From Myxococcales bacterium (GTDB lineage: Bacteria > Myxococcota > Myxococcia > Myxococcales > JAJYLH01): DNA of 61,739 nt. The notes under the pieces were generated by a model. The model did no database searches, was not told the DNA's origin, and saw only the letters and a list, made by a program, of their open reading frames with translations. The DNA lies in assembly GCA_021787845.1 (NCBI GenBank), contig JAJYLH010000033.1:1-61739 (forward strand), given 5' to 3'. How positions within the stretch are numbered: the stretch's first letter is position 1; the number at the start of each line of letters is the position of its first letter. This document shows positions 6,860-52,939 of this stretch, one piece after another. A program made the position numbers and the translations under genes.

Positions 6860-6901
6860 TCGATCGGACCGATCCGACCGATCCGACCGATCGGTCTGAT
6901 C
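6860..6901. repeat. 9-bp tandem repeat, CGATCCGAC family (copy a)
   Basis: A short run of a 9-base unit, CGATCCGAC or CGATCGGAC, ending in inverted-repeat sequence. The same family occurs at 7821-7869, 15023-15068, 41495-41540 and 43174-43212, always between genes or at the extreme start of a gene. This copy lies between the protease stop and the converging DUF72 gene. Confidence 0.85.
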
Positions 6902-7820: not shown

Positions 7821-7869
7821 TTCAGACCGATCAGACCGATCGGTCGGATCGGTCCGATCGGTCTGATCG
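7821..7869. repeat. 9-bp tandem repeat, CGATCCGAC family (copy b)
   Basis: The second occurrence of the GATCGGAC/GATCCGAC repeat family, about 49 bases, in the gap between hpt and the DUF72 gene. Its two halves are mutually complementary, so it could form a hairpin and serve as a transcription end for the salvage operon. There is no T-tract. Confidence 0.8.
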
Positions 7870-11848: not shown

Positions 11849-12634
11849 CTACGACGCCGCGGCCCGCCGGCGCCCGCGCACGATGAGCGTCGGCCCGTCG
11901 CCGTCCGCCCGCAGCTCGCCGTCGATGCCCCAGGTCTCGGCCAGCCGCGCCGGAGTCAGAACCGCGTCCGGCGTGCCCAGCGCGACCAGGCGCCCGCGAT
12001 CGAGCACCGCGACCCGTTGGAGCCGCGCCGCGAGCGACAGCTCATGCAGGACGACCACCGCCGCGCCGCCTCGGGCCGCGTGCTCCTGCACCCGTTCGAT
12101 GATCAGGAGCTGATGCCCCAAGTCCAGATGCGCCGTGGGCTCATCGAACAGAACCAGCGGCGTGCCCTGTGCGAACGCTCGCGCAATCAGGACCCGCTGC
12201 CGCTCGCCGCCCGACAGCTCCGCGAAGGGCCGCGCCGCCAAAGGACGAACGTCCGCCTCGTCCAGCGCGCGCTCGACCGCCTCCGCATCCTCGGCACGCG
12301 CCAGCCCCCACGCGCCCGCGTGCGGCGCCCGACCGAACGCCACCATCTCCCGCACCGTGAAGTCGAGATCGTAGCGCGCGCTCTGCGGCACCACCGCGAC
12401 GAGCCGCGCCCGCTCCCTGGCCGGCATCGAGGCGAGCGCCTTGCCCGCGAGCCGCACCTCGCCCGCGCCCGCGCGTAATGCGCCCACGAGCGCGCGCAGG
12501 AGCGTCGACTTCCCCGCCGCGTTCGGACCGACCACCGCCAGCGTCTCGCCCGGCGCCAAGGAGAACGACACGTCGCGCACCACGTCCGCGCCGCCGTAGC
12601 CCGCGCTGAGCGAAAGCGCTTCGATCAGGCTCAT
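11849..12634 (-). CDS. btuD: ABC transporter ATPase, BtuD/FecE type
   Basis: A 261-residue ABC ATPase that powers the BtuC-type permease encoded just upstream. The Walker A is 'GPNAAGKST' (residues 36-44), the signature 'LSGGERQRV', the Walker B 'LVLFDEPT', and the switch His lies in 'VVLHELSLAA'. The ATG overlaps the btuC stop by four bases, so translation is coupled. Sequence alone would allow iron-siderophore or heme uptake; B12 is inferred from the cobalamin riboswitch and BtuB-like receptor at the head of the operon. It is the last gene of that operon. Confidence 0.9.
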   Translation of the reverse strand: MSLIEALSLSAGYGGADVVRDVSFSLAPGETLAVVGPNAAGKSTLLRALVGALRAGAGEVRLAGKALASMPARERARLVAVVPQSARYDLDFTVREMVAFGRAPHAGAWGLARAEDAEAVERALDEADVRPLAARPFAELSGGERQRVLIARAFAQGTPLVLFDEPTAHLDLGHQLLIIERVQEHAARGGAAVVVLHELSLAARLQRVAVLDRGRLVALGTPDAVLTPARLAETWGIDGELRADGDGPTLIVRGRRRAAAS

Positions 12635-13629
12635 CGCTCGCTCCGCCGCGTCCGGCCGACGAGGAGATAGAGGAAGAGCGGCGCGCCGATGATCGCGGTG
12701 ACCATCCCGACCGGCGGGAGCGTGTGCGCGACGCGGAAGAACAGACGCGAGCCGCAGTCGGAGAGCGCGAGGAACGCCGCGCCGCCGAGGATGCTGCCGG
12801 GCACGACGATCCGGTGATCGGCGCCGAACGCGAGGCGCACGAGGTGCGGCACGATGAGCCCGACGAAACCGATGACGCCGGCCAGGCTCACCGCCGCCGC
12901 GACCAAGAGCGCGCTCGCCGCGAAGACGAACAGCCGCGTGCGTCCGACGTCGAGGCCGAGCCCGTGCGCGTCCAGCTCGCCGAGCGAGAGCAGGTTCAAC
13001 GCCGGCGCGAGACGCAAGAGCGCCAGGGAGCCGAGGGCGACCGCGATGGCCGCGACGAGGAGCGTGCGCGTCGAGACGTAGCCGATGGACCCGAGGAGCC
13101 ACGCGAAGATCGATTGCAGCGTTCCCGGCGAGGCGAGCGACTGAATCGCGAGGATGATCGCCGAGGCGAAGGCGTTGAAGACGACGCCGACGAGCAGCAG
13201 CCGTTCGGGCACCAGCCGGCCGCGCACCCGCCCGAGCGAGAAGACGATGCCCGTCGCGACGAGCGCTCCGAGGAACGCGAAGATGCCGACCAGCGAGCCG
13301 CCGAAGAGCCCGATGGCCCCGAGGCCCGCGGCGATCGCGACCGTCGCGCCGACCGCCGCGCCGCCGGAGAGCCCGAGCACGAACGGATCGGCGAGCGGGT
13401 TTTCCACCAGCGCCTGCAACGCCGCCCCCGACAGCCCGAGCGCCGCGCCGACCACCGCCGCCAGTGCCACGTTACGCGCGCGCATCGAGAGCATCAGCCG
13501 CGTCGTCGCGTCGCCACGCAGGAGCGCCGAGACGCTGATCGGCTCCGCGCCCAGCGCGACCGCCAGCACCAGCGACATCGCGAGCACGACCGTCAAAGCG
13601 ATGAGTGGGAGCACGAAACGATGGCGCAT
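12631..13629 (-). CDS. btuC: ABC transporter permease, BtuC/FecCD family
   Basis: A 332-residue inner-membrane permease with about ten hydrophobic helices, the normal size for BtuC/FecD. Family marks include 'RNVALAAVVGAALGLSGAA', 'NPLADPFVLGLSGGAA' and 'GVIGFVGLIVPHLVRL', the last being the region that contacts the ATPase. The ATG shares one base with the stop of the heptad-repeat gene (TGATG). Upstream there is only a weak GGA, so re-initiation after the preceding reading frame is probably needed. It transports cobalamin by inference from the operon's riboswitch. Confidence 0.9.
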   Translation of the reverse strand: MRHRFVLPLIALTVVLAMSLVLAVALGAEPISVSALLRGDATTRLMLSMRARNVALAAVVGAALGLSGAALQALVENPLADPFVLGLSGGAAVGATVAIAAGLGAIGLFGGSLVGIFAFLGALVATGIVFSLGRVRGRLVPERLLLVGVVFNAFASAIILAIQSLASPGTLQSIFAWLLGSIGYVSTRTLLVAAIAVALGSLALLRLAPALNLLSLGELDAHGLGLDVGRTRLFVFAASALLVAAAVSLAGVIGFVGLIVPHLVRLAFGADHRIVVPGSILGGAAFLALSDCGSRLFFRVAHTLPPVGMVTAIIGAPLFLYLLVGRTRRSER

Positions 13630-14099
13630 CACGCGTGGTCCGTCAGCCGTTGCGCGGGGGATTGCCTGCGTTCGATCGATCCGGAGGTGTGGGCGATGCG
13701 TCCGGAGGTGTGGGCGATGCATCCTGAGGTGTGGACGATCGATCCCGAGGTGTGGTCGATCGATCCTGAGGTGTGGTCGATGCATCCTGAGGTGTGGTCG
13801 ATCGATCCCGAGGTGTGGACGATCGATCCTGAGGTGTGGTTGATGCGTCCGGAGGTGTGGGCGATGCAACCGGAGGTGTGGGCGATGCAACCGGAGGTGT
13901 GGGCGATGCATCCGGAGGTGTGGGCGATGCGTCCGGAGGTGTGGGCGATGCGTCCGGAGGTGTGGGCGATGCGTCCGGAGGTGTGGGCGATGCGTCCGGA
14001 GGTGTGGGCGATGCATCCTGAGGTGTGGGCGATCGATCCTGAGATTAGGTTGCCGGCGCGAGCCCACGTTTTGAGAAGCCGCGCGATCCGCGCCATCAT
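13629..14099 (-). CDS. Heptad-repeat His/Cys protein inside the B12 operon
   Basis: A 156-residue frame that I do not recognise. Its first 22 residues are basic and partly hydrophobic ('MMARIARLLKTWARAG'). Then come 17 exact seven-residue units of the form I-x-H-T-S-G-(R/C/S): every unit has one His, and six end in Cys. A 15-residue polar tail closes it. Because the DNA unit is 21 bp, several frames are open and openness is not proof. The stronger evidence is position: the ATG overlaps the btuF stop (ATGA), GGAG lies seven bases before it, and its stop overlaps the btuC start (TGATG). No signal peptide is evident. Regular His/Cys spacing could bind metal or a corrin, but that is a guess. Confidence 0.5.
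   Translation of the reverse strand: MMARIARLLKTWARAGNLISGSIAHTSGCIAHTSGRIAHTSGRIAHTSGRIAHTSGRIAHTSGCIAHTSGCIAHTSGCIAHTSGRINHTSGSIVHTSGSIDHTSGCIDHTSGSIDHTSGSIVHTSGCIAHTSGRIAHTSGSIERRQSPAQRLTDHA
13677..14033. repeat. 21-bp tandem array, 17 units
   Basis: Seventeen tandem 21-bp units sharing GGAGGTGTGG or TGAGGTGTGG (plus strand), with a variable part such as GCGATGCGTCC, TCGATCGATCC or GCGATGCATCC. The unit length is exact throughout, so the reading frames across it are preserved on both strands. It lies between btuF and btuC within the B12 operon and encodes the heptads of the gene on the minus strand. Confidence 0.95.
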
Positions 14100-15010
14100 T
14101 TCCCCACTCCGGCGAATTGGTCGAACACCCGGGTGAGCTCAGCGAGAGCGTCGATGATTTTCGGTCCCGGATGGAGGATGCCCGGGCTGGTAAGGGCGAC
14201 CGCCTTTGCGCGCAGGACCGGCGGCAGGCCGGCGAGGGCGTTCGCGTTCTTGCCCATCGGCGCGACCAGGATGAGCTCGGGCTTCCGCGCCAGCAGCGCG
14301 TCGAGCGGCACCTCGGGAAACGGCTGCGTCGAACGCGCGACGACGTTCGTGCCGCCAGCGTCGGCGAGCAGCTCGTCCGCGAACGAGCCGGGGCCCGCCG
14401 CGATGAGGGGGTTCGTGTCGAAGAGCAGCGCGACGCGAACGCGCTTCCCGCGCTTCTTCGCCGCCGCCCGCGCGAGCGAGCGAGCCGCTTCGATCGTTCG
14501 CACCAGCGTCTGCCCGGCCGGCGCGCGCCCGAGGAGCTTCCCGATGCGCACGCTCGCGAATTCGATGTCGGCAATCGACTCCAGCCGGAACGCCTCCACC
14601 GCGATGCCGCTCGCGGCCACCATCTCGACCGCGCCGTGGTTTCCCGGCGACGGCTGCGCGAGCACCAGGTCCGGATGCAGCCGCACGATGGTCTCCGCCG
14701 AGGGATCGCTGTATCCGCCGACCCGCGGGAGGTTGGCCACCGCAGCGGCATCGTCGTAGCGCGAGACGCCGACGAGGTCGGCACCGGCGCCGAGGGCCAA
14801 GACCAGTTCGGTCAAGCTCGGCGCGAGCGTCACCACCCGGCGCACGCGGGCGGGCACCTTCGGCCCGAGATGGACCTGACGCGCGGGCGCGTGGTGCGTG
14901 CAAGCGGCGAGCGCGAGGACGGCGAACGCACACAGCCGAGCGATGAGCCGAACGCGATGCCGGTGCGAGTCGCCACCCTTCGTCGCGCGCCTCGCATCCC
15001 CGGGCGCCAT
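14096..15010 (-). CDS. btuF: Cobalamin-binding periplasmic lipoprotein, BtuF type
   Basis: A 304-residue substrate-binding protein of the helical-backbone (BtuF/FecB) class. The marks are 'RVVTLAPSLTELVLALGAG', 'DLVGVSRYDD' and 'PDLVLAQP', followed by a central basic helix and a C-terminal lobe with 'ELILVAPMGKNANALAGLP'. The lipobox 'LALAAC' places the lipidated Cys at residue 37, so it is anchored rather than free. The frame is open to an ATG at 15136 that overlaps the upstream stop. The 42 residues this adds are largely a translated 9-bp repeat and would bury the signal peptide, so I prefer 15010, although coupled initiation at 15136 cannot be excluded. Confidence 0.88.
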   Translation of the reverse strand: MAPGDARRATKGGDSHRHRVRLIARLCAFAVLALAACTHHAPARQVHLGPKVPARVRRVVTLAPSLTELVLALGAGADLVGVSRYDDAAAVANLPRVGGYSDPSAETIVRLHPDLVLAQPSPGNHGAVEMVAASGIAVEAFRLESIADIEFASVRIGKLLGRAPAGQTLVRTIEAARSLARAAAKKRGKRVRVALLFDTNPLIAAGPGSFADELLADAGGTNVVARSTQPFPEVPLDALLARKPELILVAPMGKNANALAGLPPVLRAKAVALTSPGILHPGPKIIDALAELTRVFDQFAGVGK

Positions 15011-15022
15011 GCGCCAGGAACG

Positions 15023-15068
15023 TCGATCGGACCGATCGGACCGATCCGACCGATCCGACCGATCGGTC
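15023..15068. repeat. 9-bp tandem repeat, CGATCCGAC family (copy c)
   Basis: The third copy of the GATCGGAC/GATCCGAC repeat, lying between the coupled ATG at 15136 and the likely btuF start at 15010. Read in the btuF frame it gives a D-R-S repeat without a stop. Confidence 0.85.
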
Positions 15069-15132
15069 ATGTCGTCGGCAGCGAGCGGCAGCCGCGGGCG
15101 AGTGTGTCGTCGCACATCGCTCGACGTGAGCT

Positions 15133-16350
15133 TCATGGCTTCACCACGACCCGCACGATTTCGCTCGGCGACGGGCGCGTGTCCATGCCGAGACCCGGTA
15201 TCGCGACGTAGAACGCGCTCCCGTCGTACGCCACCGCGGTCGGGTAGTCCGTTCCCGCGGAAGGCGAGGTCTTCAGGTCTATCGAACCGACGAGCTTGGG
15301 CGTCCCGGTGAGCGACGCGAAGACGAGCGTGCCATACGCGGAGTTCGTGACCGCCGCGAGCGTCGAGGTTCCCGCGATGCCTTCGAGGTCGTCGCCGCCC
15401 TGCGTGCCGCCGCCGAGATAGACCTCCGCGCGTTTTGCCGTCGGCAGAACCTGCGACAGCGTGCCGCCCGTGTTGTCGAGGACGTAGAGCGCGTCGCCCA
15501 GGAGGCCGAACTTGAGCGGCCCCGAACCCACCGAAATCGGATTACCGACCGTCTTCCCGGTCGTGGGGTCGAACTCCTGCACCGCGTCGTCGTTGAAGCA
15601 CGAGGCGAACGCGCGCCCGCCGACGGCCGCGAGCCCGGCGACGAAACCGATCTTCGTCGAGCTCTCCTGGCACAGCGAAACCATTTCCTTGCCGCCTTGT
15701 CCTGCCAGCACCTCGAAGTTGTCGTAGGACACGTGCGAGACGCCGCCGCCCTCGCCGTCGCCGAGCCAGACGTCGTTGCCGATGCGCACGACCGATCCCG
15801 GCGACCGTCCGACGGTGACGATGCGCCGGACCGTGCCGTCGAACCCGACATCGACCAGCGCGCCGTCGTCGGTGTGCCCGCCGCTCAGGGAAATCTTGCC
15901 GGCGCACGCGATGAGCAGGCCGTCGTCCGTCGCGACCATGTCCATCGCTTGTCGGCACTGGCTCGCGTTCGTCTCCAAGGACACGGGAGCGGAGGCGGTC
16001 AAGGTCGCCGGATCATAGATGCCCAGGAACGACGGTCCCGCCGGGGCGTAGTGATAGAGGTTGGCAAGGGTGACATAGAGCTTGCCGTGCGCGACGACCA
16101 GCGCCGTCGGATCCGCATCCCCCGGCTGGCTTGGATTGTCGGGCGGCAGCGCCGCGCCGTCGGGAATCACGACCCGCCGATCGATGGTCGCTTGGACCGT
16201 CGCGGGAGATGTCGAGGTCGGCCCGCAGGCGAGCACCGTCAGCGCGAGGGGCAACAACACCGCGGTCCAAGGCAGACGCTGCGTACGAGCGCGAAACCGC
16301 TCATTCCGAGCGCAGTCGAGGAACGAGCGGTTCTTCGTGGCGGTACCCAT
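15133..16350 (-). CDS. BtuG-like beta-propeller lipoprotein of the B12 operon
   Basis: A 405-residue lipoprotein whose lipobox 'LTVLAC' puts the Cys at residue 42. The mature part is a repetitive beta-rich domain with YncE-like blades: 'PTALVVAHGKLYVTLAN', 'GSVVRIGNDVWLGDGEGG', 'GLAAVGGRAFASCFND' and 'TAVAYDGSAFYVAIPG'. It lies directly after btuB under a cobalamin riboswitch. In Bacteroides the surface lipoprotein BtuG is a beta-propeller that captures B12 for BtuB, so I infer the same job here; no homology search was run. The frame is open up to an ATG at 16689 overlapping the btuB stop, but the intervening 113 codons are dispersed-repeat sequence. The ATG at 16350 is the last before the signal peptide, and its first residues are also repeat-derived. 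Confidence 0.75.
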   Translation of the reverse strand: MGTATKNRSFLDCARNERFRARTQRLPWTAVLLPLALTVLACGPTSTSPATVQATIDRRVVIPDGAALPPDNPSQPGDADPTALVVAHGKLYVTLANLYHYAPAGPSFLGIYDPATLTASAPVSLETNASQCRQAMDMVATDDGLLIACAGKISLSGGHTDDGALVDVGFDGTVRRIVTVGRSPGSVVRIGNDVWLGDGEGGGVSHVSYDNFEVLAGQGGKEMVSLCQESSTKIGFVAGLAAVGGRAFASCFNDDAVQEFDPTTGKTVGNPISVGSGPLKFGLLGDALYVLDNTGGTLSQVLPTAKRAEVYLGGGTQGGDDLEGIAGTSTLAAVTNSAYGTLVFASLTGTPKLVGSIDLKTSPSAGTDYPTAVAYDGSAFYVAIPGLGMDTRPSPSEIVRVVVKP

Positions 16351-16665
16351 CCCTCGACTGCGCTCGGGATGAGCGGTGGTGGAGCGCTCGGGATGAGCGG
16401 TGGTGGAGCGCTCGGGATGAGCGGAGTCAGCCTCGGAGTGCGACTCGCCGACACGTCCCTGCGAGGTTCCGCTCCGCTCCACCCGTCCTGCGGCTGCACC
16501 GAAATCGGAGCCGGACACGTCAGTGTCCGGGTAAAGGCACCGCGCCTGAGGAATCTTGGTGGCGCCGGACCGCTGGTCCGGCAGGAGAGCCAGCGGCCCG
16601 CCACTACTGAGTCGGTTACGGTCCCTGCCTGTACCGGGACACTGGCGTGTCCGGCTCCAATTCCC
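16293..16665. repeat. Cluster of dispersed palindromic repeats between btuB and the propeller gene
   Basis: Three repeat families are packed here. The first is the CTCGGGATGAGCGG family (several units in 16293-16432), also seen at 18719-18842, 29878-29912, 51378-51411 and 55129-55155. The second is a GGACACnnnnnGTGTCCGG palindrome near 16508-16530 and 16632-16660, seen again at 46368-46500. The third is a GGACCGCTGGTCCGG / ACTACTGA element near 16562-16610, related to those at 46600 and 51470. Confidence 0.8.
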
Positions 16666-16685: not shown

Positions 16686-18554
16686 TCATCTCTCCTCCGG
16701 AATCCACCCGAGGTGGGCGAGAACCACGCGCCCGGGCAGCGGGTAGCCCTCGAGGCAGGCGCGGTCGGTGACGTCGAGGGCGTTGCGGACCTCGACCGAT
16801 AGCCAGGCGTCGGCGACGACGCGCACGCCCAAGGACGCGCGCACATCGAGGAACGGCGCGACCGACCGGGTGTTCGCGGTGTTCGTAAACGCCTGCGCCG
16901 TCCAGTCGACTCCGGCCGACGCGCGCACCCGCCCCCGCGCGTACGTCAGGCGCCCGTCCACCCGCGCCCGCGGGCGATACGGCAGGTCGTTGCCGTACGA
17001 GTTCGGCCCCGGCACCAGGTTCGTCGCCGTAAGCAGCGTCAGCGCCGTCGAAGCGCCGAGGCCCTTCAGCGGCCCCTCGCCGAGCGACGCGCGCGCCTCG
17101 CCCTCGACGCCGACCGTCCGCGCCTGGCCCAGGTTGAACGGCTTCACGAGCGAGCCCGAGAACATTTCGTAGATGATCTGATCCTGGAACAAACCGGCGA
17201 AGAGCGCGCCGTTCGCCTCGAGGTCGAGCCGCGTCCCCGGCCGCTGATAGCGCGCGCCGAGGTCCGCGGTCCACGAGCGCTCCGGCAGGAGGTCCGGGTT
17301 CGGCAGAATCGGTCCCGCGGAGTAGTAGAGCTCTCCGAAGGACGGCGGCCGGAAGCCTCCGCCGACGTTCGCGTAGAGGTAGAGGCCGCGCTCGATCGCC
17401 ACGCTCGCGCCCAGCCGCGGCAGGAGGCCGACCGCGTTCCCCCACATCTCGACCCGGCCCGCGAGGCTACCAGTGAGGCGCCCCCGCTCGCGCGCGATTT
17501 CGACGCCGAGCCCGCCGCGCCAACGCGTGTGGTGCCCGTGGTAGGTCCCGTCGAACCGCTCGCCGCCGGCGAGACCGCTCAGGCGAAGCAGCAGCGGTCC
17601 CAGAGGACGCGCATACGCCGGCTTGGTCCCGACGTCGAGGTAGGTCTGCTCGCCCGAGAGCGTCACCGCGTCGCCGCCGGTCGCGTCGAGGAAGCCGGTG
17701 CGCGCGAAGAGCGGCAGCTCCAGCGTCTTCGTCCGCCAGTCGAGGTCCGCGACCAGCGTCTTCTCGTCCTGCCGCGCGGTCGGCGTCGGCGAAAAAATCG
17801 GTCCCGGCAGCCCGCGATCGGTCCAGGTGCCGAAGGCGAAGCCCGACAGCTTTCCTTCCGGCGCGCGTCGCTCGACCCGTACCAGCACCGACCGGATCGT
17901 CGCGTCGTTGTTCGCGCGGCGCATCGTCACGAGCGGGTCGTCGCCCGCGGTCTCCGGCGTCGGATCGCGGTGGTAGACGAAGTCGCCGGCCGAGCGCCGG
18001 GCATCGAGCGCGATCGTCGCTCGCCACCAGGCCGCGTCGGTCACGAAGTCGCGAGCGAGCGACGCGCTCGCGCCGAACGTCCCGAGCGACCCGGCGGTCA
18101 GGAGCGCGCGCGAGGACTTCGCCGGCGTGAGCTCGATGGCGCCCGACATCGCCGCCGCGCCGAGCCGCGCGTCCGCCCCGCGCTCGACCAGCACCTGCGA
18201 CAAGAGCGCCGCCGGCACCAGCGAGAGGTCGAGCCCGCCGCCGGCCGGCGACCCGAGCGGCACGCCATCGAGGAGCACCGCCGCCTCGTCCGCCGTCCCG
18301 CCCCGGAGCGAAATCGTCGTCGTCGCGAGCACTCCGCCGAAGTCGAGCGCCAGCGCTCCCGGCACCGAGCGCAGCACGTCGCCCAGGTGCTCGGCCTCGA
18401 GCCGGCGCGATTCGAGCTCGACCTTGGTCCGGGTCTGCCCGTCGGCGGCGGGGCGGGGCGCGCGGATGGTGAGGGAGTTCTGGTCGTCCGCCCGCGCCGG
18501 GCTCGCGGCGACGAGCGCCACGACGAGCCATCCGAGCTGTGCCCTGCGCGCCAC
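16686..18554 (-). CDS. btuB: TonB-dependent outer-membrane receptor, BtuB-like
   Basis: A 622-residue TonB-dependent receptor. It has a signal peptide (residues 1-22, ending 'ASPARA') and a plug domain with 'VLRSVPGALALDFGG', 'TTISLRGGTADEAAVLLDG' and 'VLVERGADARLGAAAMSGA', followed by a beta-barrel. The C-terminal 'GYPLPGR', with the last strand after it, matches the end of BtuB-type receptors. I see no clear TonB box. The start is a GTG with GGAG nine bases upstream. A cobalamin riboswitch lies directly upstream, making vitamin B12 the best substrate. Its first 914 bases are duplicated at 24659-25572. Confidence 0.93.
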   Translation of the reverse strand: MARRAQLGWLVVALVAASPARADDQNSLTIRAPRPAADGQTRTKVELESRRLEAEHLGDVLRSVPGALALDFGGVLATTTISLRGGTADEAAVLLDGVPLGSPAGGGLDLSLVPAALLSQVLVERGADARLGAAAMSGAIELTPAKSSRALLTAGSLGTFGASASLARDFVTDAAWWRATIALDARRSAGDFVYHRDPTPETAGDDPLVTMRRANNDATIRSVLVRVERRAPEGKLSGFAFGTWTDRGLPGPIFSPTPTARQDEKTLVADLDWRTKTLELPLFARTGFLDATGGDAVTLSGEQTYLDVGTKPAYARPLGPLLLRLSGLAGGERFDGTYHGHHTRWRGGLGVEIARERGRLTGSLAGRVEMWGNAVGLLPRLGASVAIERGLYLYANVGGGFRPPSFGELYYSAGPILPNPDLLPERSWTADLGARYQRPGTRLDLEANGALFAGLFQDQIIYEMFSGSLVKPFNLGQARTVGVEGEARASLGEGPLKGLGASTALTLLTATNLVPGPNSYGNDLPYRPRARVDGRLTYARGRVRASAGVDWTAQAFTNTANTRSVAPFLDVRASLGVRVVADAWLSVEVRNALDVTDRACLEGYPLPGRVVLAHLGWIPEER

Positions 18555-18563
18555 GCCAAGCGA

Positions 18564-18587
18564 CTCCGGCTCCTTCGCCCGAGGAGC
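18564..18587 (-). promoter_or_regulatory. Candidate ribosome-site hairpin (riboswitch expression platform)
   Basis: On the minus strand GCTCCT pairs perfectly with AGGAGC across a seven-base loop (18569-18587). This hides an AAGGAG that lies between the riboswitch and the btuB GTG; a second GGAG follows at 18564-18567. A stem that covers a Shine-Dalgarno sequence just below the aptamer is a common way for cobalamin riboswitches to block translation. The assignment is inference from the pairing. Confidence 0.4.
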
Positions 18588-18604
18588 GTCGAAAGTCGAA
18601 AGCG

Positions 18605-18945
18605 AAAGGGCAGGTTTCCTGGCTCCCGAAGCGCTCCCGATGATCAGGAGCCATGCCGGCCGCCTTCCCCGGAACCCGGGTGGCTTCAGGCCGGCACGCG
18701 CGCCATCCTTCGATCAGCTCCGCTCATCGCGAGCGGGCCCACCCCGCTCATCCTGAGCGGGCCCACCCCGCTCATCCCGAGCGGGCCCACCCCGCTCATC
18801 CCGAGCGGGCCCACCCCGCTCATCCTGAGCGGAGTCGAAGGACGGTAACGACCTCGGCTACAGTGGCGGGACCGCGCCGGACTTGGACCGGCTTCCCTTT
18901 TCCCCGACTGGAGCTTCTCCCATCCAGCCGGGCACCCTTCGCCGA
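18605..18945 (-). promoter_or_regulatory. Cobalamin (B12) riboswitch controlling btuB, with repeat-expanded arm
   Basis: Read on the minus strand, the conserved pieces appear in order: GGTGCCCGG (5' stem), GGGGAAAAGGGAAGCCGGTC, CCGCCACTGTA (the CCGCnACTGT element, 18857-18869), GAAGCCACC then CCGGGGAAGGC, and GGGAGCCAGGAAACCTGCC at the 3' end (18609-18627). This is the cobalamin aptamer core, ending about 55 bases before the btuB start. Between the ACTGT element and the GCCAC element an array of five hairpin-forming 24-base repeats lengthens a peripheral arm. High cobalamin should lower btuB-operon expression. Confidence 0.9.
18719..18842. repeat. Five 24-bp palindromic repeats inside the riboswitch
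   Basis: Five units of about 24 bases, each with CCGCTCATC followed by CGAGCGGG or TGAGCGGG, so every unit can form a hairpin. They belong to the dispersed CTCGGGATGAGCGG family of this genome and sit in a peripheral riboswitch arm. The same five units are present in the second riboswitch copy. Confidence 0.9.
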
Positions 18946-18988
18946 CGAACCGCCGCGAGGTTGCACCGAGAAAGGCCGCGAGGTCAAG

Positions 18989-23910: not shown

Positions 23911-24560
23911 TACCTCGCGGGGACGTTCTTCACGTCCTTCCGAGCGAGAATGCTCCGGACAGCCTTGGCGTCCGTTGCAGGTGGCTGTTCCGCATGACCC
24001 GGCAAAGCCCGGCGTGCGGCCCTTTCCATCTGCGTGTTGCGAGCCGAGCGGCTAATAGAGACTTTCGCCGTGCTTCCTGTACCTCTGGCCCGCAGGACCT
24101 CCCGCAGCCCCCCCGACGGTGACGCGAGGCATGATTGCACCAGGCGTGCCAGGAGGGCTGGCGAGCGAAGACGCGGAGTGATCCCGCTCTTTACGGCCCT
24201 CGGACAGGCAGGCGGGCTCGGGAGTTATGCACAGACCGGCAAGAGTTGCGAGGGCGAGTTGTAGAGATCTCGGCCGCTGGTGGTACGTGGGCGAGATCCT
24301 GATGCGCGCCGGGCGTCGAATTCGCCCTGATCGCGGATGTTGCCCCGGCGCTCGGCGGGTTGTCCACAGGAAGGTAATAGGTACCGTTGGTGCTCGCCGA
24401 GAGGGCACGATTTGCCTATGAGGAACGCGCGGCAGGGGGAGCCGCGCTTTCGGAAGCGAAGCCGGACCAGGCGAGAGTAGTCGCACGGTGGGCGCAGGAC
24501 AAGCGCGACGTGCTCGCCCACAAGTGCGCAGCCTGGTCGCACTACGCCGGGTGGTTAAGC
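23911..24560. other. Non-coding stretch beside the duplicated segment
   Basis: I see no intact gene. Frames here are short, and the long minus-strand frame that runs on from btuB' has an Arg/Ala/Pro-rich translation with no recognisable motif. The stretch probably carries the promoter of the three-paralogue row and decayed mobile-element sequence. Confidence 0.5.
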
Positions 24561-24656
24561 GGCGAAGGCACCGGGCTCTTCTTCGAGCGGCTTTGGCAAG
24601 ACACGGCCACCGCCGCCGTGCTTGAGCGGCGCCTGCGGTGGAACGGATGCGATCGA
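24561..24656 (+). pseudogene. Transposase fragment (IS1634/IS4-like), truncated at the repeat junction
   Basis: The plus-strand frame gives 'GLFFERLWQDTATAAVLERR', resembling the early conserved segment of IS1634-type transposases (LxFxRLWxxxGxxxxLxxLL). The match stops abruptly at 24658, exactly where the duplicated btuB segment begins. Only about 30 residues are recognisable, so the family call is tentative. Confidence 0.4.
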
Positions 24657-24658
24657 GA

Positions 24659-25572
24659 TAGGTCTGCTCGCCCGAGAGCGTCACCGCGTCGCCGCCGGTC
24701 GCGTCGAGGAAGCCGGTGCGCGCGAAGAGCGGCAGCTCCAGCGTCTTCGTCCGCCAGTCGAGGTCCGCGACCAGCGTCTTCTCGTCCTGCCGCGCGGTCG
24801 GCGTCGGCGAAAAAATCGGTCCCGGCAGCCCGCGATCGGTCCAGGTGCCGAAGGCGAAGCCCGACAGCTTTCCTTCCGGCGCGCGTCGCTCGACCCGTAC
24901 CAGCACCGACCGGATCGTCGCGTCGTTGTTCGCGCGGCGCATCGTCACGAGCGGGTCGTCGCCCGCGGTCTCCGGCGTCGGATCGCGGTGGTAGACGAAG
25001 TCGCCGGCCGAGCGCCGGGCATCGAGCGCGATCGTCGCTCGCCACCAGGCCGCGTCGGTCACGAAGTCGCGAGCGAGCGACGCGCTCGCGCCGAACGTCC
25101 CGAGCGACCCGGCGGTCAGGAGCGCGCGCGAGGACTTCGCCGGCGTGAGCTCGATGGCGCCCGACATCGCCGCCGCGCCGAGCCGCGCGTCCGCCCCGCG
25201 CTCGACCAGCACCTGCGACAAGAGCGCCGCCGGCACCAGCGAGAGGTCGAGCCCGCCGCCGGCCGGCGACCCGAGCGGCACGCCATCGAGGAGCACCGCC
25301 GCCTCGTCCGCCGTCCCGCCCCGGAGCGAAATCGTCGTCGTCGCGAGCACTCCGCCGAAGTCGAGCGCCAGCGCTCCCGGCACCGAGCGCAGCACGTCGC
25401 CCAGGTGCTCGGCCTCGAGCCGGCGCGATTCGAGCTCGACCTTGGTCCGGGTCTGCCCGTCGGCGGCGGGGCGGGGCGCGCGGATGGTGAGGGAGTTCTG
25501 GTCGTCCGCCCGCGCCGGGCTCGCGGCGACGAGCGCCACGACGAGCCATCCGAGCTGTGCCCTGCGCGCCAC
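24659..25572 (-). pseudogene. btuB: Truncated btuB copy
   Basis: The first 304 codons of btuB, identical to the intact gene as far as I can read, from the GTG through the plug domain and the first barrel strands ('LSGEQTYLD'). Then the frame enters unrelated sequence and continues for about 200 meaningless codons. Without most of the barrel it cannot form a receptor. It retains its own complete riboswitch. It may be a by-product of the event that inserted the DNA between the two copies. Confidence 0.9.
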
Positions 25573-25622
25573 GCCAAGCGACTCCGGCTCCTTCGCCCGA
25601 GGAGCGTCGAAAGTCGAAAGCG

Positions 25623-25963
25623 AAAGGGCAGGTTTCCTGGCTCCCGAAGCGCTCCCGATGATCAGGAGCCATGCCGGCCGCCTTCCCCGGAACCCGGGTG
25701 GCTTCAGGCCGGCACGCGCGCCATCCTTCGATCAGCTCCGCTCATCGCGAGCGGGCCCACCCCGCTCATCCTGAGCGGGCCCACCCCGCTCATCCCGAGC
25801 GGGCCCACCCCGCTCATCCCGAGCGGGCCCACCCCGCTCATCCTGAGCGGAGTCGAAGGACGGTAACGACCTCGGCTACAGTGGCGGGACCGCGCCGGAC
25901 TTGGACCGGCTTCCCTTTTCCCCGACTGGAGCTTCTCCCATCCAGCCGGGCACCCTTCGCCGA
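25623..25963 (-). promoter_or_regulatory. Cobalamin riboswitch, second copy
   Basis: The same aptamer as at 18605-18945, including all conserved elements and the five internal repeats, shifted by 7,018 bases. Here it controls only the truncated btuB. Confidence 0.9.
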
Positions 25964-26137
25964 CGAACCGCCGCGAGGTTGCACCGAGAAAGGCCGCGAG
26001 GTCAAGGCGGGAGACCCAGCCGCGGCGACTGAGCCAAGAACGGTCTTCCGCTTCGCTTGGGCGGCGCGGAGTTTCGCTCGCAACCGCACCCATCCTATTC
26101 GAGCTCCGGCGAGACGGACTCGGCCTGGGCGACCATG

Positions 26138-26512
26138 AGCCTGCATGCAGGGGGCCCGACTGCATCGTTGTGGATCGCCAGCCCGCATGCAGGGAGGCCG
26201 ACCGCATCGTTGTGGATCGCCAGCCTGCATGCAGGGAGGCCGACCACATCGCCGAGAACGCCAGCCTGCATGCAGGGAGGCCGACCGCATCGTTGTGGAT
26301 CGCCAGCCTGCATGCAGGGAGGCCGACCGCATCGCCGAGAACGCCAGCCTGCACGCAGGGAGGCCGACCGCATCGTTGTGGATCGCCAGCCTGCATGCAG
26401 GGAGGCCGACCACATCGCCGAGAACGCCAGCCTGCATGCAGGGAGGCCGACCGCATCGTTGTGGATCGCCAGCCTACATGCAGGGAGGCCGACCACATCG
26501 CCGAGACGCGTC
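26138..26512. repeat. Nine-unit tandem array of alternating 42- and 41-bp units
   Basis: Nine units share a core with CCTGCATGCAGGGAGGCCGA. Six of the nine tails read either CGTTGTGGATCGCCAG (42-bp unit) or CGCCGAGAACGCCAG (41-bp unit), mostly in alternation. Each unit contains the palindrome CTGCATGCAG (degenerate in three). All frames through it are shadows; it does not look like a gene or a CRISPR array because there are no unique spacers. Confidence 0.9.
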
Positions 26513-41494: not shown

Positions 41495-41540
41495 TCCGAT
41501 CGGACCGATCGGACGGATCCGACCGATCGGACCGATCGGC
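41495..41540. repeat. 9-bp tandem repeat, CGATCCGAC family (copy d)
   Basis: The fourth copy, centred in the divergent gap between the MFS gene and the oxidase, with five 9-base units. Confidence 0.85.
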
Positions 41541-43152: not shown

Positions 43153-43173
43153 AGCTGGGCGGCGGCCGGCCGC

Positions 43174-43212
43174 CGATCAGACCGATCGGACCGATCCGAC
43201 CGATCGGTCCGA
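43174..43212. repeat. 9-bp tandem repeat, CGATCCGAC family (copy e)
   Basis: The fifth copy, directly after the oxidase stop and before the SNF2 gene. Confidence 0.8.
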
Positions 43213-52187: not shown

Positions 52188-52890
52188 ACCACGAGCCAGT
52201 CGGTGACAACCTCGGGCACCAAAATGGTCGCGAGGTGTCAGTCGGTGACACGTGCGAGGGATTTGAGACCCCCCGAGGTGTCAGTCGGTGACAACCTCGG
52301 GCTCCAAAATGGTCGCGAGGTGTCAGTCGGTGACACGATCGAGGGACTTGAGACCCCCCGAGGTGTCAGTCGGTGACAACCTCGGGCTCCAAAATGGTCG
52401 CGAGGTGTCATCCGGTGACACGTGCGAGCGACTTGAGACCCCCCGAGGTGTCAGTCGGTGACAACCTCGGGCTCCAAAATGGTCGCGAGGTGTCAGCCGG
52501 TGACACGTGCGAGGGATTTGAGACCCCCCGAGGTGTCAGTCGGTGACAACCTCGGGCTCCAAAATGGTCGCGAGGTGTCAGCCGGTGACACGTGCGAGGG
52601 ATTTGAGACCCCCCGAGGTGTCAGTCGGTGACAACCTCGGGCTCCAAAATGGTCGCGAGGTGTCAGCCGGTGACACGTGCGAGGGATTTGAGACCCCCCG
52701 AGGTGTCAGTCGGTGACAACCTCGGGCACCAAAATGGTCGCGAGGTGTCAGTCGGTGACAACCTCGGGCACCAAAATGGTCGCGAGGTGTCAGTCGGTGA
52801 CACGTGCGAGGGATTTGAGACCCCCCGAGGTGTCAGCCGGTGACACGTGCGAGGGATTTGAGACCCCCCGAGGTGTCAGCCGGTGACAAC
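52188..52890. repeat. Sixteen-unit tandem array of alternating 42- and 43-bp units
   Basis: Sixteen units, each beginning with GTGTCAGTCGGTGACA or GTGTCAGCCGGTGACA (arms TGTCA and TGACA, spacer five). Eight continue ACCTCGGGCTCCAAAATGG (42 bp) and eight continue CGTGCGAGGGATTTGAGACC (43 bp), mostly in strict alternation. The array fills the divergent gap between the hemerythrin gene and the 53200 gene. Frames through it are shadows. Confidence 0.95.
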
Positions 52891-52939
52891 CGACGCCCCC
52901 TCCCCGACCCTCCCCCGCCAAGAGCGCAGGAGAGGGAGG

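What the first reader, a model, noticed from the sequence alone, without database searches (positions are those of the whole stretch)
13629..14099. A His/Cys heptad-repeat protein translationally coupled inside a vitamin B12 import operon
Seen: between btuF and btuC lies a 156-residue frame with 17 exact I-x-H-T-S-G-(R/C/S) units. Its ATG overlaps the btuF stop with GGAG seven bases upstream, and its stop overlaps the btuC start. Known: BtuF, BtuC and BtuD are normally encoded without such a partner. Inference: the frame is used, at least to carry ribosomes across the array to btuC, and the evenly spaced His (every seventh residue, plus six Cys) might bind cobalt, a corrin or another metal. 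The rival view is a neutral 21-bp expansion that stays open because 21 is a multiple of three.
Basis: partly seen in the sequence, partly recalled or inferred. Interest (0 to 1): 0.75.

Follow-up and report, generated by a model that had tools for sequence, protein, structure and literature searches.

The report
Repeat DNA between vitamin B12 genes
A 21-letter DNA repeat, which also occurs at two non-coding places in the same genome, has settled between two vitamin B12 import genes; it happens to read as an open frame that could hand ribosomes on to the next gene, but nothing indicates that its His/Cys-rich peptide has a function.

Summary
Window 13629-14099 (-) is an open frame of 156 codons with 17 I-x-H-T-S-G-(R/C/S) units, overlapping the btuF stop (ATGA) and the btuC start (TGATG) in a cobalamin-riboswitch-associated operon. 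The metal-binding-protein reading does not hold. The same 21-bp unit forms two more arrays in this genome, both intergenic. In one (upstream of a hutH-like gene) the same frame is cut by two TAA codons and frameshifts, yet the CACACC core stays invariant and largely the same bases vary. N/S in that frame is 0.57 in the operon array and 0.69 in the non-coding one. All three frames of that strand are open across the array, and codon usage does not favour the His frame. The array is absent from 194 other Myxococcota; 26 relatives have btuF joined to btuC (18 at -4, 2 at -1, all within 54 bp). The extra 462 bp lie between two copies of TGATG; joining the flanks restores an ordinary coupled junction. 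Best reading: a lineage-specific dispersed minisatellite sits in a translational-coupling site, much as mycobacterial MIRUs do. Because the insert divides by three and holds no stop, the ORF still links btuF to btuC. Coupling through it is plausible but untested.

The parts
13680..14033 (-). 21-bp minisatellite array, 17 units, consensus (minus strand) ATC GMC CAC ACC TCN GGA NNN
13629..14099 (-). open frame of 156 codons running through the array; probably an incidental, possibly translated, coupling ORF
14094..14098 (-). left copy of TGATG: btuF stop plus putative ancestral btuC start; left edge of the insert
   Evidence: relatives with TGATG (-1) or NTGA (-4) junctions
13627..13631 (-). right copy of TGATG: ORF stop plus present btuC start; right edge of the insert
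13632..14093 (-). 462-bp segment absent from relatives (60-bp head, array, 45-bp tail)
14096..15136 (-). btuF-like periplasmic binding protein gene
   Evidence: PF01497, E 4.3e-22
12631..13629 (-). btuC-like FecCD permease gene
   Evidence: PF01032, E 3.3e-75
11849..12640 (-). btuD-like ATPase gene
   Evidence: PF00005, E 3.2e-30
16686..18554 (-). BtuB-like TonB-dependent receptor gene, upstream in the same direction
   Evidence: PF00593 and PF07715
18823..18955 (-). cobalamin riboswitch upstream of the receptor gene
   Evidence: RF00174, 35.3 bits
13615..14102 (.). imperfect inverted repeat flanking the array (arms 13615-13638 and 14079-14102, 75% complementary); weak evidence

Best explanation
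A dispersed 21-bp minisatellite of this lineage, with short flanks, sits in the btuF/btuC translational-coupling site. Shown: the array, its two sister arrays in non-coding DNA, the direct junction in relatives, and a TGATG at each edge of a 462-bp extra segment. Inferred: the segment arrived as an insertion that duplicated TGATG, or by duplication and expansion, and so separated the btuF stop from the btuC start. Because the 462 bp divide by three and hold no stop in that frame, a ribosome that ends btuF can restart at ATGATG, read the repeat, and stop at the second TGATG, where btuC starts. The peptide is a by-product, if it is made at all. The array's uniformity comes from repeat expansion and homogenisation, not from selection on the His, Thr, Ser or Gly residues.
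For: Sister arrays of the same unit lie upstream of a hutH-like gene (C103:1906-2195) and between two genes (C87:3143-3418) in the same genome. In C103 the same frame has two TAA stops and frameshifted units. Variable bases are largely shared by the operon array and the non-coding C103 array: 4 shared among 7 and 5 of 21 positions, P 0.025, Spearman 0.66. The N/S ratio in that frame is 0.57 against 0.69 in the non-coding array, and 0.66 in another frame of the operon array. Third positions of the Ile, His and Thr codons never vary in 17 units. Codon-usage score of the His frame is -0.20 per codon in the array, against 0.12 to 0.76 for real genes; an antisense frame scores highest at 0.26. All 26 relatives with both genes found have btuF within 54 bp of btuC, 18 at -4 and 2 at -1. 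The unit is absent from 194 other genomes of the phylum. TGATG stands at both edges of a 462-bp segment, and joined flanks give a normal junction with SD energy -7.1. The -4 and TGATG spacings are known coupling motifs (PMC12548453).
Against: No close relative is available (best BtuC identity 54%), so the empty site is inferred from distant genomes. The three arrays share no flanking sequence, so no mobile element is visible. Two TGATG copies are also what selection for coupling alone would give. N/S 0.57 in the His frame is under 1, and a weak coding constraint cannot be excluded from 17 homogenised units. No expression data.
Confidence: 0.8

Rival explanations
1. The frame encodes a real His/Cys heptad-repeat protein that binds cobalt, a corrin or another metal and assists B12 import.
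For: The frame is open for 156 codons, has a good Shine-Dalgarno match (-7.1) and couples exactly at both ends. His at every seventh residue is invariant.
Against: The His codon is just as invariant in the two non-coding arrays. The same frame carries TAA stops in C103. There is no Pfam match, codon usage is poor, AlphaFold mean pLDDT is 39 without an alignment, and no relative has such a gene at the junction.
Confidence: 0.04
2. The array is a regulatory spacer: its length or RNA tunes how much btuC/btuD is made relative to btuF, perhaps varying with copy number.
For: It lies exactly at a coupling junction. The btuC start now has a weak Shine-Dalgarno match (-3.2) against -7.1 at the old site. 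A flanking inverted repeat would pair the two start regions. The hutH sister array also lies just upstream of a gene.
Against: The RNA fold of the whole region is no more stable than shuffles (z -0.52). The inverted repeat is reached by 1.65% of same-geometry places and was noticed after the fact. The third array lies on the opposite strand to its neighbouring genes. No copy-number variation could be observed.
Confidence: 0.12
3. The array arose in place by slippage at the junction, with no insertion event; the sister arrays were seeded from it.
For: Units grow by tandem duplication: runs of identical neighbours such as four IAHTSGR units. The arrays share no flanks.
Against: The 60-bp head and 45-bp tail are not repeat-like (only the last bases of the head resemble a partial unit), yet they too have no counterpart in relatives; and TGATG stands at both edges.
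Confidence: 0.15

Closest known systems
Mycobacterial interspersed repetitive units (MIRU), as at senX3-regX3
   Same: A dispersed tandem repeat placed at a start/stop overlap inside an operon, carrying an ORF coupled to the flanking gene (PMC12548453; MIRUs in the senX3-regX3 intergenic region, PMC4213456).
   Different: From general knowledge, MIRU units are about 46-101 bp, each with its own small ORF, and number dozens per genome. Here the unit is 21 bp, one ORF spans all units, and only three loci are known, of which one is at a coupling site. No sequence relationship was tested.
Families of dispersed non-coding satellites in prokaryotes (e.g. Leptospira interrogans)
   Same: Related tandem arrays at several unlinked, non-coding places in one genome; described as rare in prokaryotes (PMC6749651).
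   Different: That survey's listed families have repeats over 30 nt; this unit is 21 nt.
Bacterial minisatellites / VNTR loci
   Same: Short unit, head-to-tail copies, near-identical, mostly intergenic.
   Different: Copy-number variation between strains could not be examined here.
btuF-btuC-btuD (BtuFCD) B12 import operon
   Same: Gene content, domains, cobalamin riboswitch upstream.
   Different: A repeat-bearing 462-bp segment separates btuF from btuC.

Membership tests
Dispersed minisatellite (satellite family) | Tandem head-to-tail copies of one unit | tested here: met
   period 21, 16.9 copies; sister arrays 14.3 and 13.4 copies
Dispersed minisatellite (satellite family) | Related arrays at several separate loci of the genome | tested here: met
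   C133, C103, C87
Dispersed minisatellite (satellite family) | Copy number varies between strains (VNTR) | not testable with these tools
   no second genome of the species, genus or family was found
MIRU-like coupling insertion | Lies at a stop/start overlap and carries an ORF overlapping both neighbours | tested here: met
   ATGA and TGATG overlaps
MIRU-like coupling insertion | Several copies inserted at such sites | tested here: not met
   the other two arrays lie in intergenic DNA outside coupling sites
MIRU-like coupling insertion | Homology to MIRU units | not tested
   the 21-bp unit is shorter than the length recalled for MIRUs; no comparison was run
Metal-binding His/Cys repeat protein | Conservation of ligand residues by selection on the protein | tested here: not met
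   same pattern in a non-coding array with stops; N/S 0.57 against 0.69
Metal-binding His/Cys repeat protein | Conserved gene in relatives | tested here: not met
   direct or near-direct btuF-btuC junction in 26 relatives
Metal-binding His/Cys repeat protein | Defined fold | tested here: inconclusive
   pLDDT 39 without an alignment
BtuFCD importer operon | Binding protein, FecCD permease and ATPase genes, B12 regulation | tested here: met

The most novel reading that the evidence does not exclude
A satellite that moves into start/stop coupling sites, as MIRUs do in mycobacteria, has arisen independently in a Myxococcota lineage, and its repeat number sets the amount of BtuC made per BtuF.
Probability: 0.1. 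Interest if true: 0.55.

Novelty: new member of a known kind. Interest (0 to 1): 0.27.

Why it matters
It is a clear case in which a regular, perfectly coupled 'repeat protein' gene inside a well-known operon is best explained as a minisatellite, so similar ORFs should be checked against non-coding sister arrays before a function is assigned. It also offers a possible second example, outside mycobacteria, of a repeat tolerated at a translational-coupling site because it stays open and in frame.

Tried and rejected
A shared mobile element around the three arrays: flanks of 150 bp show no cross-array similarity above background. A structured RNA: the fold is no better than shuffles, and no Rfam family matches besides the two riboswitches. 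A fold for the peptide: AlphaFold without an alignment gives pLDDT 39. The array in other organisms: none in 78 same-order genomes, 194 other genomes of the phylum, 12 genomes behind GTDB loci (some of which may repeat the earlier ones), or IMG/VR with a stricter pattern. Close relatives in GTDB 220: best BtuC identity 54%. A Pfam family for the peptide: none.

Full report
Observation. The window holds, on the minus strand at 13629-14099, an open frame of 156 codons with 17 exact I-x-H-T-S-G-(R/C/S) units. The underlying DNA is a 21-bp tandem array at 13680-14033. The frame's ATG overlaps the btuF stop as ATGA, and its stop overlaps the btuC start as TGATG. The neighbours carry the domains of a BtuF-type binding protein, a FecCD permease and an ABC ATPase. 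A TonB receptor lies upstream, with a cobalamin riboswitch before it.

Openness is weak evidence. All three minus-strand frames are free of stops across the array, as is one plus-strand frame. The codon-usage score of the His frame is -0.20 per codon in the array, while the five reference genes score 0.12 to 0.76; the best of the six frames is an antisense one (0.26). AlphaFold without an alignment gives mean pLDDT 39, which is uninformative on its own. Pfam has no match.

The unit is a dispersed family. In the same genome two further arrays of this unit were found: C103:1906-2195, just upstream of an aromatic amino acid lyase (hutH-like) gene, and C87:3143-3418, between two genes, in a variant form with one base gained and one lost per unit. 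In C103 the I-x-H-T-S-G frame is cut by TAA in two units and shifted in others, so it cannot be the same protein. Nevertheless the CACACC core (His-Thr in the operon copy) is invariant there too, and the variable bases are largely the same: 4 shared among 7 and 5 of 21 positions, P = 0.025; Spearman 0.66. The ratio of non-synonymous to synonymous differences in this frame is 0.57 in the operon array and 0.69 in the non-coding one; another frame of the operon array gives 0.66. Third positions of the Ile, His and Thr codons never vary in 17 units. This is the signature of homogenised DNA, not of selection on the residues.

Relatives. The pattern is absent from 78 same-order genomes and from 194 other genomes of the phylum (the second set includes most of the first), from 12 genomes reached through GTDB loci and, in a stricter form, from IMG/VR. 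In 26 relatives with both genes at hand, btuF lies directly before btuC: 18 with a -4 overlap, 2 with -1, and 6 with gaps of 2 to 54 bp. The closest available BtuC is only 54% identical, so the comparison is distant.

The empty site. TGATG stands at 14098-14094 and again at 13631-13627, with 462 bp between. Joining the flanks gives GGAGTGGGGAAATGATGCGCCATCG, an ordinary coupled junction of the TGATG kind with a good Shine-Dalgarno match (-7.1), like that in two relatives (L036 and L059). 462 is divisible by three, so a frame entering at the first TGATG ends exactly at the second. The head and tail outside the array stay open in 47% of shuffles. The exact coupling at both ends, which looked remarkable, thus follows from a duplicated junction, a length divisible by three, and a stop-free unit. 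Whether TGATG was duplicated by an insertion or kept by selection for coupling cannot be told from one genome.

Mechanism. The most likely course is that ribosomes finishing btuF restart at ATGATG, read the array and restart again at btuC. This is inferred; a recent review lists -4 and TGATG spacings among the coupling motifs and describes mycobacterial MIRUs, mobile repeats that insert at start codons so that an ORF within them is coupled at -4 (PMC12548453). The present case works like a MIRU at this one site, but is not filed as one: the unit is far shorter than those recalled for MIRUs, and the other two arrays are not at coupling sites. Dispersed non-coding satellites are reported as rare in prokaryotes (PMC6749651).

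Loose ends. An imperfect inverted repeat (13615-13638 and 14079-14102) flanks the array and could pair the two start regions; 1.65% of places of the same geometry in the window do as well, and the whole region folds no better than shuffles. The arrays share no flanks, so how the unit spread is unknown. Array length may be affected by assembly.

Verdict. Observation confirmed; ribosome-delivery idea plausible and untested; metal-binding protein not supported. A new member of a known kind, of modest interest.

Noticed in passing
window 24052-25973 (-) and 16686-18955 (-): The cobalamin riboswitch, 24-bp array and first part of the BtuB-like receptor gene occur twice; the second copy (ORF 24052-25572) keeps the plug domain but loses the barrel domain and seems to be a truncated duplicate.
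   Followed up: partly
window 16360-16424, 18720-18832, 25738-25850; L002 about 1960-2010: A 24-bp repeat with ATCCCGAGCG cores lies between genes and, in L002, appears to run in frame inside the N-terminus of the hutH-like gene.
   Followed up: no
window 6861-6892, 7827-7869, 15024-15066, 41496-41539, 43173-43212; L024 3890-3933: Short arrays of the 9-bp unit CCGATCGGA are scattered through the genome; one falls inside the N-terminal part of the btuF frame (DRSDRSDRSD), so the true btuF start may lie further downstream.
   Followed up: no
window 26138-26506: A 42/83-bp array with the palindrome CCTGCATGCAGG just upstream of the second riboswitch copy.
   Followed up: no
window 52197-52891: An array of about eight 85-bp units containing GGTGACA and GAGGTGT motifs.
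   Followed up: no
window 13615-13638 and 14079-14102: Imperfect inverted repeat that flanks the 21-bp array and includes the btuC start and the ORF start.
   Followed up: partly
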